DNA from: Pseudomonadota bacterium | GTDB lineage: Bacteria > Pseudomonadota > Alphaproteobacteria > Rhodobacterales > Rhodobacteraceae | Direction: 5' to 3' | DNA: 64,000 bases | Assembly (NCBI GenBank): GCA_021813365.1 | Contig: JAKALB010000001.1 | Location: forward strand, 1 to 64,000 | In this document: piece by piece, positions 60,797 through 63,803 of the stretch | Position numbering within the stretch: position 1 is the first letter of the stretch | How the letters are laid out: every line of letters begins with the position of its first letter | The notes under the pieces: generated by a model | Told to the model about the DNA's origin: nothing | Seen by the model: only the letters and a program-made list of their open reading frames with translations | The model's database searches: none | Program-made: the position numbers and the translations under genes

Positions 60797-60953
60797 CAAG
60801 CTGCGCCGCGCCGTTGCGCCGGCCGCCTCTTTTCCGGGCAGCGGCAGGGGCGCGGGAAGGTTTCCAGACTTCCGGCGCCCGGTTTGACTTTACCTCCGGC
60901 GCATGGTCCTTACCTCGGAAACCAGCGCCCCCGATCCAGGAATCCTCCGGTCG

Positions 60954-62147
60954 ATGCCTCATGACCTGCCGCTGATCACCACCATCGCCGCCGCGCTGTC
61001 GCTGGCCACCGTCCTGGCCTTTCTGGCGCATCGCCTGCGGCTGCCGCTGATCGCGGGCTATCTGACGGCAGGCATCGTCATCGGCCCCTTCACGCCAGGC
61101 TTCGTGGCCGATCCGGAAATCGCGCAGGAACTGGCCGAGATCGGCGTCATCCTCCTGATGTTCGGCACCGGGCTGCAATTCCATCCCCGCGACCTGCTGG
61201 CCGTGAAACACATCGCCATTCCCGGGGCACTGGCAGGCATCAGCGCCGCCGCCCTGGCCGGGGGTGGTCTGGCGCTGGCCATGGGCTGGGGCATGGGCGC
61301 GGCGGTGATCTATGGTCTGGCGCTTTCGGTCGCCTCGACCGTGGTGCTGATGCGCGCCATGCAGGATCGCGACATGGTGAAAACCGAACGCGGCCGCATC
61401 GCGATGGGCTGGCTGGTGGTCGAAGACCTGATCACCGTGATGGCCCTCGTGCTGATTCCGCCCTTGTCGGGCCTTCTGGGTGGCCGCGGCGACCAGTCGC
61501 TGCCGTTCAGCGAACTGGCCAATGTGCTGGGCTGGACCCTGGTCAAGCTGGCGGCCTTCGTGGCGCTGATGCTGGTCGTGGGCCGCCGCCTGATCCCCAG
61601 CGCGCTGCACTACACCGCCCTCACCGGCCAGCGCGAATTGTTCCGCCTTTCGGTTCTGGCCATTGCCCTGGGCGTGGCCTACGGCGCCTCTGCCTTCTTT
61701 GGGGTCAGCTTTGCGCTCGGGGCGTTCTTTGCCGGGATGATCATGTCGGGCTCCACCCTGTCGGCCCAGGCGATGAAAGACGTGCTGCCCCTCCGGGATG
61801 CCTTTGCGGTGCTGTTCTTCGTCTCGGTCGGCATGCTGGCGAATCCCGCGGTCCTCTGGCTGCATCCGCTGCCGGTGCTGGCCACGATCGCCATCATCCT
61901 GTCGGTCAAGACCACGGTCGCCTTTCTCCTGACCCGCGCACTGGGCCAGGACCGGCCCACCGCCGCCACGATCGCCGCCGCACTTGCCCAGATCGGCGAG
62001 TTTTCCTTCATCCTGATCGCCATGGGCACCGGCCTGGGCATCTTGCCGTCCGAGGCGCGCGATTACGTCGTGGCGGGGGCGCTGGTCTCGATCATCCTGA
62101 ACCCGTTCCTCTTCGACCTGCTGGACCGCCGCCTCGGCCGCGCCTAG
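60954..62147 (+). CDS. Cation:proton antiporter, KefB/CPA2-like transmembrane domain
   Basis: Multi-TM; RLRLPLIAGYLTAGIVIGPFTPGFV; GVSFALGAFFAGMIMSGS; no RCK/TrkA-N domain. Confidence 0.85.
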   Translation: MPHDLPLITTIAAALSLATVLAFLAHRLRLPLIAGYLTAGIVIGPFTPGFVADPEIAQELAEIGVILLMFGTGLQFHPRDLLAVKHIAIPGALAGISAAALAGGGLALAMGWGMGAAVIYGLALSVASTVVLMRAMQDRDMVKTERGRIAMGWLVVEDLITVMALVLIPPLSGLLGGRGDQSLPFSELANVLGWTLVKLAAFVALMLVVGRRLIPSALHYTALTGQRELFRLSVLAIALGVAYGASAFFGVSFALGAFFAGMIMSGSTLSAQAMKDVLPLRDAFAVLFFVSVGMLANPAVLWLHPLPVLATIAIILSVKTTVAFLLTRALGQDRPTAATIAAALAQIGEFSFILIAMGTGLGILPSEARDYVVAGALVSIILNPFLFDLLDRRLGRA

Positions 62148-62175
62148 CTTGGGGCGCGCAGAGCGAGGAACCGTC

Positions 62176-63075
62176 ATGACCGAAAACGTATCCACCCACC
62201 AGGCCGAGGAAGACGCGCGCAACGAATCGATCCTGATCTATGTGAACGGCCAGATCCTTCCCAAGGCGCAGGCCATGGTCAGCGTCTATGACAGCGGCTT
62301 CATGCTCGGTGACGGCGTGTGGGAGGGGCTGCGGCTGTACAACGGCCGCTGGAGCTTTGTCGACGAGCACATGGATCGCCTGTTCGAGGCCGCCAAGGCG
62401 ATCGATCTGGATATCGGGATGACCAGGGATCAGCTCGTTTCCGCATTGTCAGAGACGCAAATGGCCAATGGCATGACCAATGATGTCCATGCCAGGCTGA
62501 TGGTGACGCGGGGGGTCAAGACCCGGCCGTTCCAGCACCCGCGCCTGTCGCGGCAGGGCCCGACGGTGGTCATCATCATGGAGCACAGTCGCCCGAAACT
62601 GCCCAGGCCGATCAGGCTTGCCACCGTGCCGCACCTGCGCGGCCTGCCGATGACGCAGGACCCGAAGCTGAACAGCCATTCCAAGTTGAATTGCATCCTG
62701 GCCTGCATCGCCGCCGAAAAGGCGGGCGCGGACGAGGCCCTGATGCTGGATGTGCATGGCTTCGTGAACACGACCAACGCCTGCAACTTCTTCATCGTGA
62801 GGAAGGGCCAGGTCTGGACCAGCACGGGCGACTATTGCATGAACGGCATCACCCGTCAGAAGGTCATCGACCTGTGCCGCGCCAACGGCATTCCGGTGTT
62901 CGAGCGCAATTTCAGCCTGGTCGACACCTATTCCGCGGACGAGGCCTTCCTGACCGGCACTTTCGGCGCGCAGACCCCAGTCGGCTGGATCGACGGACGG
63001 CAGATCGGCACCGGCCAGATGGGACCGATGACCAGGCGCCTGCGCGCCCTCTACATGACGCTGGTTGGCGCATGA
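62176..63075 (+). CDS. PLP-dependent class-IV aminotransferase (BCAT/DAAT-like)
   Basis: VSVYDSGFMLGDGVWEGLRLYNGRWSFVDEHMDRL...KLNCILACIAAEKAGADEALMLD...FNTTNACNFFIV-type motif. Confidence 0.9.
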   Translation: MTENVSTHQAEEDARNESILIYVNGQILPKAQAMVSVYDSGFMLGDGVWEGLRLYNGRWSFVDEHMDRLFEAAKAIDLDIGMTRDQLVSALSETQMANGMTNDVHARLMVTRGVKTRPFQHPRLSRQGPTVVIIMEHSRPKLPRPIRLATVPHLRGLPMTQDPKLNSHSKLNCILACIAAEKAGADEALMLDVHGFVNTTNACNFFIVRKGQVWTSTGDYCMNGITRQKVIDLCRANGIPVFERNFSLVDTYSADEAFLTGTFGAQTPVGWIDGRQIGTGQMGPMTRRLRALYMTLVGA

Positions 63076-63803
63076 CACCCGATCCCACCCGCATCGCCAT
63101 GTGGAGCGGCCCCCGCAACCTGTCGACCGCGATGATGTATGCCTTCGCGGCGCGAGGGGATTGTGCCGTATGGGACGAGCCGTTCTATGCCGCCTACCTG
63201 GCCGCGACCGGCCTGCCGCACCCGATGGCCGATCAGGTGATTGCGGCCGGCATGTCCGATCCGGCGGCTGTGGCGGCGGCCTGCCTGGGGCCGATTCCGC
63301 AGTCGCAGAGACTGTTTTACCAGAAACACATGACGCTCCACATGATCCCGCCCTTTGATCGCGGTTTCATGCGGGGGCTGACCAACGTGTTCCTGATCCG
63401 CCATCCGGCCCGGGTCGTGGCCAGCTATGCGCAAAAACGCGAGGCGCCGACGCTGGCCGACATCGGTTTCGTCCAGCAGGCAGAGCTTTTCGATCAGATC
63501 GCCGACTGGCTGGGCCATGCGCCCTTGGTGATCGACAGTGCGTCCATCCGGGCCAACCCACGGGAATCGCTTGGCAAGCTCTGCCGCGCTCTGGGCATCG
63601 GCTTCACCGAAAACATGCTGTCCTGGCCGGCCGGGCCCAAGCCCTGGGATGGCATCTGGGCGCCGCACTGGTACAACGCCGTCCATGCCTCTACCGGGTT
63701 CGGCGACCCGGAAGGGCCCTTGCCGGCGCTGAAGGACGACTTCGCCCGGCTGGTGGACCGGGCGATGCCATCTTACGAAAAGCTGAGGAGTCTGGCGCTC
63801 TAA
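63072..63803 (+). CDS. Sulfotransferase-like P-loop protein
   Basis: RIAMWSGPRNLSTAMMYAFAARGDCAVWDEPFYAAYL...FLIRHPARVVASYAQ; ATGA overlap with the aminotransferase. Confidence 0.82.
   Translation: MTPDPTRIAMWSGPRNLSTAMMYAFAARGDCAVWDEPFYAAYLAATGLPHPMADQVIAAGMSDPAAVAAACLGPIPQSQRLFYQKHMTLHMIPPFDRGFMRGLTNVFLIRHPARVVASYAQKREAPTLADIGFVQQAELFDQIADWLGHAPLVIDSASIRANPRESLGKLCRALGIGFTENMLSWPAGPKPWDGIWAPHWYNAVHASTGFGDPEGPLPALKDDFARLVDRAMPSYEKLRSLAL

What the first reader, a model, noticed from the sequence alone, without database searches (positions are those of the whole stretch)
62176..63803. Aminotransferase plus sulfotransferase-like P-loop protein: coupled pair of unknown function
A PLP class-IV aminotransferase and a P-loop protein (WSGPRNLSTAMMYAF...DEPFYAAYL) overlap by ATGA. 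From memory, plant 'branched-chain aminotransferase-like' proteins carry both domains in one polypeptide, with a similar P-loop domain (APRSLSTSLMYSFAQR...DEPLYASFL) and ending (WAP-WYKSVHESTGF; here WAPHWYNAVHASTGF). Fusion in one lineage and translational coupling in another suggests a shared reaction or complex with no pathway I can name.
Basis: partly seen in the sequence, partly recalled or inferred. Interest (0 to 1): 0.62.

Follow-up and report, generated by a model that had tools for sequence, protein, structure and literature searches.

The report
Lysine-less aminotransferase homolog coupled to sulfotransferase
Two overlapping genes encode an aminotransferase-like protein that has lost the lysine such enzymes need and a probable sulfate-transferring enzyme; the pair is kept together in many bacteria, so it is probably one uncharacterised sulfation module rather than an ordinary aminotransferase with a neighbour.

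Summary
A class-IV aminotransferase homolog (AT, 62176-63075) and a Sulfotransfer_5 protein (ST, 63072-63803) overlap by ATGA. The coupling is real and conserved. In 80 relatives from other genomes, 77 have ST directly after AT. In 199 genomes of the window's family both genes occur in 128, AT alone in 5, ST alone in 3, neither in 63; 40 of the 128 keep both although unlinked.

The PLP-binding lysine is asparagine (N166) in every ortholog checked, and the glutamate that contacts the PLP ring is Thr/Ser. The phosphate cup and two arginines remain. The closest solved structure (7z79, Variovorax) has the same Asn; a depositor mutant, 9j32, is N174K. ST keeps the residues expected of PAPS sulfotransferases, and 44 of 45 ST-bearing genomes encode APS kinase.

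New here: AT copies lacking an ST partner often sit in amino-acid ABC-transporter operons instead, which points to an amino-acid-like ligand.

Best reading: AT binds an amino-acid-type molecule without a Schiff base, and ST sulfates it or a product. The substrate is unknown. The plant fusion could not be tested here; no bacterial fusion was found.

The parts
62176..63075 (+). AT: class-IV aminotransferase homolog (PF01063), 299 aa, lacks the catalytic lysine
63072..63803 (+). ST: Sulfotransfer_5 (PF19798) P-loop protein, 243 aa, probable PAPS sulfotransferase
63072..63075 (+). ATGA stop/start overlap (translational coupling)
   Evidence: the same overlap in 56 of 67 AT-ST loci
62165..62169 (+). 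GAGGA, probable Shine-Dalgarno of AT, 6 bases before its ATG
   Evidence: read from the sequence
62671..62673 (+). codon AAC = N166 of AT, the column of the PLP Schiff-base lysine
   Evidence: phmmer alignment with 5mqz/5cm0/5e25; Asn in 80/80 and 49/49 orthologs
62770..62772 (+). codon ACG = T199 of AT, the column of the glutamate that contacts the PLP pyridine nitrogen
   Evidence: alignment; Thr 45, Ser 4 of 49
63102..63128 (+). W11-SGPRNLS-T19 of ST, 5'-phosphosulfate-binding (P-loop) motif
   Evidence: P14 R15 N16 S18 T19 invariant in 72/72
63177..63179 (+). E36 of ST, candidate catalytic base
   Evidence: invariant in 72/72; role inferred by analogy with tyrosylprotein sulfotransferase
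63324..63326 (+). K85 of ST, candidate catalytic lysine of sulfotransferases
   Evidence: invariant in 72/72; role inferred
63399..63425 (+). R110...S118 of ST, 3'-phosphate-binding motif of PAPS sulfotransferases
   Evidence: invariant in 72/72; region aligned to CurM and olefin-synthase sulfotransferases

Best explanation
The two genes are one functional module. AT is a fold-type-IV transaminase descendant that no longer forms a Schiff base with PLP. It keeps the phosphate cup and carboxylate-binding arginines and probably binds an amino-acid-type small molecule, either to present it or to change it without covalent PLP. ST is a PAPS-dependent sulfotransferase that sulfates this molecule or its immediate product. 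Shown: genes, overlap, conservation, loss of Lys and Glu, sulfotransferase fold and motif residues, co-occurrence. Inferred: PAPS as donor, an amino-acid-type ligand, a shared substrate. Unknown: the substrate, and whether the two proteins form a complex.
For: Coupling: 77 of 80 loci adjacent, two of the three exceptions at contig ends. In the window's family 128 both / 5 AT only / 3 ST only / 63 neither, Fisher p=8e-42; leaving out the 88 linked genomes, 40/5/3/63, p=5e-21. Across the phylum, all 17 ST+ genomes have AT and 2 have AT only. AT: N166 at the lysine column in all orthologs, Glu replaced by Thr/Ser, while R53, H65, R68, R107, T226, R227 and T262 are invariant. The depositors of the nearest structure call it 'aminotransferase-like' and made N174K. 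ST: profile hits CurM (E=3e-9) and olefin-synthase (E=3e-8) sulfotransferases; the model (pLDDT 95.6) best matches these and tyrosylprotein sulfotransferases. APS kinase in 44 of 45 ST+ genomes against 35 of 56 good-quality genomes of the class, p=7e-6. Amino-acid ligand: 7 of 11 AT loci in genomes without ST, or in the transporter clade, lie in amino-acid ABC-transporter operons.
Against: One ST+ genome (G032, listed as complete) has no APS kinase, so PAPS may not be the donor there. Four of the 128 'both' genomes (G337, G426, G431, G435) carry only an AT of the R-type transporter clade, unlinked; counting them as ST-only gives 124/5/7/63, p=2e-37. Co-occurrence p-values ignore phylogeny. A shared substrate is not shown by any experiment.
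Confidence: 0.5

Rival explanations
1. AT is a pure pseudoenzyme subunit: it only stabilises or regulates ST, with no small-molecule role of its own.
For: Catalytic Lys and Glu lost; translational coupling; near-constant co-occurrence.
Against: AT also exists without ST, then often in amino-acid transporter operons. The old active site stays strictly conserved (D162, N166, H168, S169, R53, R107), which a mere scaffold would not need.
Confidence: 0.2
2. AT is still a PLP or PMP enzyme that holds the cofactor non-covalently or uses another lysine (K170) and supplies an amino or keto acid that ST then sulfates.
For: Phosphate-cup residues R68, T226, T262 are invariant; K170 is four residues from the lost lysine.
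Against: K170 is Arg in the R-type clade including 7z79; the Glu needed to activate the pyridine ring is gone.
Confidence: 0.15
3. ST is a P-loop transferase of the sulfotransferase fold that uses a donor or chemistry other than PAPS.
For: G032 keeps linked AT and ST but has no detectable APS kinase; its only PAPS_reduct match is a single gene.
Against: All PAPS-type signature residues are invariant; 44 of 45 ST+ genomes have APS kinase; the best fold matches are PAPS sulfotransferases.
Confidence: 0.12
4. The genes are merely neighbours by descent, with no shared function.
For: Wider neighbourhoods are lineage-specific housekeeping synteny.
Against: The pair alone persists across lineages with different neighbourhoods, has a conserved stop/start overlap, and is retained together when unlinked.
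Confidence: 0.03

Closest known systems
'Aminotransferase-like protein' from Variovorax paradoxus, PDB 7z79 and its N174K mutant 9j32
   Same: About 50% identity over the whole AT; same fold; same Asn at the PLP-lysine column.
   Different: Falls in the R-type clade (NSHSRLN) with AT copies that mostly sit with an ABC transporter rather than with ST. I found no functional paper on it in the library.
Branched-chain aminotransferases of fold type IV (5mqz, 5cm0, 5e25)
   Same: Same fold and about 38% identity; phosphate cup and two substrate-side arginines kept.
   Different: They have the PLP lysine and the pyridine glutamate; AT has Asn and Thr.
PAPS sulfotransferases: CurM and olefin-synthase sulfotransferase domains (4gbm, 4gox) and tyrosylprotein sulfotransferases
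   Same: Sequence-profile match to the first two, fold match to all, same nucleotide-binding signatures.
   Different: Only about 12-18% identity, shorter protein, own Pfam family (Sulfotransfer_5), no known substrate; tied to AT rather than to a polyketide synthase or a membrane.
Plant branched-chain-aminotransferase-like proteins with a P-loop domain
   Same: Said to join both domains in one chain.
   Different: Not tested: no plant sequences are held; the papers found by name mention such genes without characterising them, as far as titles and abstracts show.

Membership tests
Class-IV PLP aminotransferase | Fold-type-IV domain (PF01063) | tested here: met
   140.5 bits against a cut-off of 28.5; Foldseek matches to transaminases
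Class-IV PLP aminotransferase | Lysine forming the Schiff base with PLP | tested here: not met
   N166 at that column; Asn in 80/80 and 49/49 orthologs
Class-IV PLP aminotransferase | Glutamate at the PLP pyridine nitrogen | tested here: not met
   Thr or Ser in 49/49
Class-IV PLP aminotransferase | Phosphate-binding cup (H-x-x-R, I-T-R, T-G-T) | tested here: met
   H65, R68, T226, R227, G261, T262 invariant; equivalence taken from the alignment and general knowledge of the family
Class-IV PLP aminotransferase | Transaminase activity | not testable with these tools
   needs purified protein
PAPS-dependent sulfotransferase (Sulfotransfer_5) | Family profile and sulfotransferase fold | tested here: met
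   PF19798 267 bits; 4gbm E=3e-9; Foldseek top matches are sulfotransferases
PAPS-dependent sulfotransferase (Sulfotransfer_5) | 5'-PSB loop, catalytic Lys, 3'-phosphate Arg and Ser | tested here: met
   R15, S18, T19, K85, R110, S118 in 72/72; roles assigned by analogy
PAPS-dependent sulfotransferase (Sulfotransfer_5) | Host can make PAPS (APS kinase) | tested here: inconclusive
   44 of 45 ST+ genomes; G032 is an exception
PAPS-dependent sulfotransferase (Sulfotransfer_5) | Sulfuryl transfer from PAPS | not testable with these tools
   needs an assay
Plant fused aminotransferase-like / P-loop proteins | Both domains in one polypeptide | tested here: not met
   separate chains in the window and no fusion in the 80 bacterial loci
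Plant fused aminotransferase-like / P-loop proteins | Reciprocal sequence match of the plant P-loop domain to Sulfotransfer_5 | not testable with these tools
   no plant sequences held

The most novel reading that the evidence does not exclude
A former PLP transaminase has become the substrate-handling half of a two-protein sulfotransferase: its PLP site now holds an amino-acid-type molecule that the partner sulfates, giving a widespread, undescribed sulfated metabolite made by hundreds of bacterial species and possibly, as a fused protein, by plants.
Probability: 0.25. Interest if true: 0.85.

Novelty: new variant of a known kind. Interest (0 to 1): 0.6.

Why it matters
These proteins belong to families that databases name branched-chain or D-amino-acid aminotransferase and sulfotransferase; for AT the label is probably wrong, because the catalytic lysine is absent throughout. 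The pair is a very tight two-gene association with no known pathway. It occurs in many Alpha- and Gammaproteobacteria and, on a few Actinomycetota contigs, outside them, and so predicts a common sulfated metabolite. The repurposed PLP pocket and the alternative partner (an amino-acid transporter) make the ligand question testable by simple binding and metabolomics experiments.

Tried and rejected
Fused bacterial forms: none in 80 loci; long open frames in the hit lists look like overlapping frames of high-GC DNA. Seven loci that my script labelled ST-then-AT are an artefact of overlapping hits; where the ST start was worked out it lies at the AT stop. Real reversed order is seen in G032 and G250. 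Phages and plasmids: no relative in viral contigs and only four distant plasmid hits at about 30%, so the pair looks chromosomal. Wider operon context for a pathway hint: the recurrent neighbours are ordinary housekeeping genes (2-oxoacid dehydrogenase E2, dihydrolipoamide-dehydrogenase-like protein, transglycosylase, D-Ala carboxypeptidase, ThrRS-like) and follow lineage synteny. Literature: no paper on the pair, on the plant fusion or on 7z79 function in the library; PMC12506393 and PMC11625862 name the Sulfotransfer_5 profile only in passing. Mirror-tree correlation of AT and ST (r=0.60) is weak evidence because species history alone produces it.

Full report
Observation. AT (62176-63075) and ST (63072-63803) lie on the + strand and overlap by ATGA. 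AT is a class-IV aminotransferase by fold (PF01063, 140.5 bits) and ST a Sulfotransfer_5 protein (PF19798, 267 bits). AT scores below the curated cut-off of every NCBIfam aminotransferase model it matches, and its genome holds three other PF01063 genes.

Loss of the PLP lysine. In the phmmer alignment with three branched-chain aminotransferases of known structure, the lysine of 'KSLNYLNNILA' falls on N166 of 'NSHSKLNCILA', and the glutamate of 'SEGSGDN' on T199. The PLP roles of that Lys and Glu are established knowledge of fold type IV. Asn is invariant in 80 of 80 loci of the genome collection and 49 of 49 aligned orthologs. Asp162, His168, Ser169, Arg53, Arg107, Arg68, Thr226, Arg227 and Thr262 are also invariant. 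The protein is therefore not decaying; it has a different, strictly kept active site. The closest structure, 7z79, is titled 'aminotransferase-like protein from Variovorax paradoxus', and 9j32 is its N174K mutant, so its depositors noticed the same residue.

Sulfotransferase. A profile of 72 ST orthologs finds CurM and olefin-synthase sulfotransferase domains (E=3e-9 and 3e-8). The AlphaFold model (mean pLDDT 95.6) matches those and tyrosylprotein sulfotransferases best. The residues expected for PAPS binding and catalysis (R15, S18, T19, E36, K85, R110, S118) are invariant in 72 of 72; their roles are assigned by analogy. APS kinase, needed to make PAPS, is found in 16 of 17 and 28 of 28 ST+ genomes, against 35 of 56 good-quality genomes of the class (Fisher p=7e-6). 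The exception, G032, has linked AT and ST and a single PAPS_reduct gene.

Coupling. In 249 genomes of the phylum, 17 have ST and all 17 have AT; two more have AT alone. In 199 genomes of the window's family, 128 have both, 5 AT only, 3 ST only, 63 neither; 88 pairs lie within 3 kb and 40 are unlinked. The association holds among unlinked genomes (p=5e-21), although related genomes are not independent. Four of the 40 carry only a transporter-type AT (see below); without them the numbers are 36/5/7/63, p=8e-17. In the genome collection, the best 80 of at least 582 relatives include Xanthomonadales, Sphingomonadales, other Proteobacteria and some Actinomycetota; 77 have ST next to AT on the same strand. 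In 56 of 67 the genes share the ATGA/GTGA overlap.

Tree. The AT tree has three clades: a broad clade nearly always linked to ST, the window's family clade, and an R-type clade (NSHSRLN) that includes 7z79. Four Actinomycetota sequences nest beside Xanthomonadales for AT, and ST identities lean the same way, which fits transfer of the pair as a unit. Those four contigs come from metagenome bins, so binning errors are possible.

A second partner. Among 11 AT loci from genomes without ST, or in the transporter clade, six (L066, L067, L149, L151, L154, L156) lie directly downstream of, or one regulator gene away from, a binding protein / permease / permease / ATPase set for polar amino acids. In a seventh (L158) AT lies between an ATPase plus OCD/mu-crystallin imine reductase and a ProC-type reductase, behind amino-acid permeases. 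L157 is cut off by a contig end. Several of these operons carry a GntR-FCD regulator, and one (L151) is next to ectoine genes doeA and doeB. None of the 80 collection loci shows this arrangement. This alternative context suggests that the AT ligand resembles an amino acid.

Conclusion. The pair is a conserved module. The first protein is a repurposed transaminase fold without PLP lysine, the second a probable PAPS sulfotransferase. A shared amino-acid-type substrate is the most economical reading but is inferred. The plant fusion remains untested.

Noticed in passing
L066, L067, L149, L151, L154, L156, L158: AT copies lacking an ST partner often sit in amino-acid ABC-transporter operons, some with GntR-FCD regulators, ProC-type or OCD-type reductases.
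   Followed up: partly
L151 4668-6841: In G426 the AT/transporter operon lies beside ectoine degradation genes doeB and doeA (NCBIfam equivalog cut-offs passed).
   Followed up: no
L022 1501-2124, L023 1501-2094: Two genomes of the family carry a second, distant (about 30%) Sulfotransfer_5 paralog (LWAVPRSTSTAF motif); no AT was found within the 1.5 kb of flank held.
   Followed up: no
G032 (L020, L064): ST+ genome listed as complete without any APS kinase match; gene order reversed (ST then AT) and AT of the R-type.
   Followed up: partly
L093, L125, L134, L136: Actinomycetota contigs carry the pair with AT nested beside Xanthomonadales; all four are metagenome-assembled genomes, so either transfer of the pair or mis-binning.
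   Followed up: partly
window 60903-62147: A multi-spanning cation/proton antiporter-like gene (identified by eye) ends 28 bp before AT on the same strand, so the pair may share its transcript here; this neighbour was not among those that recur at other loci.
   Followed up: partly
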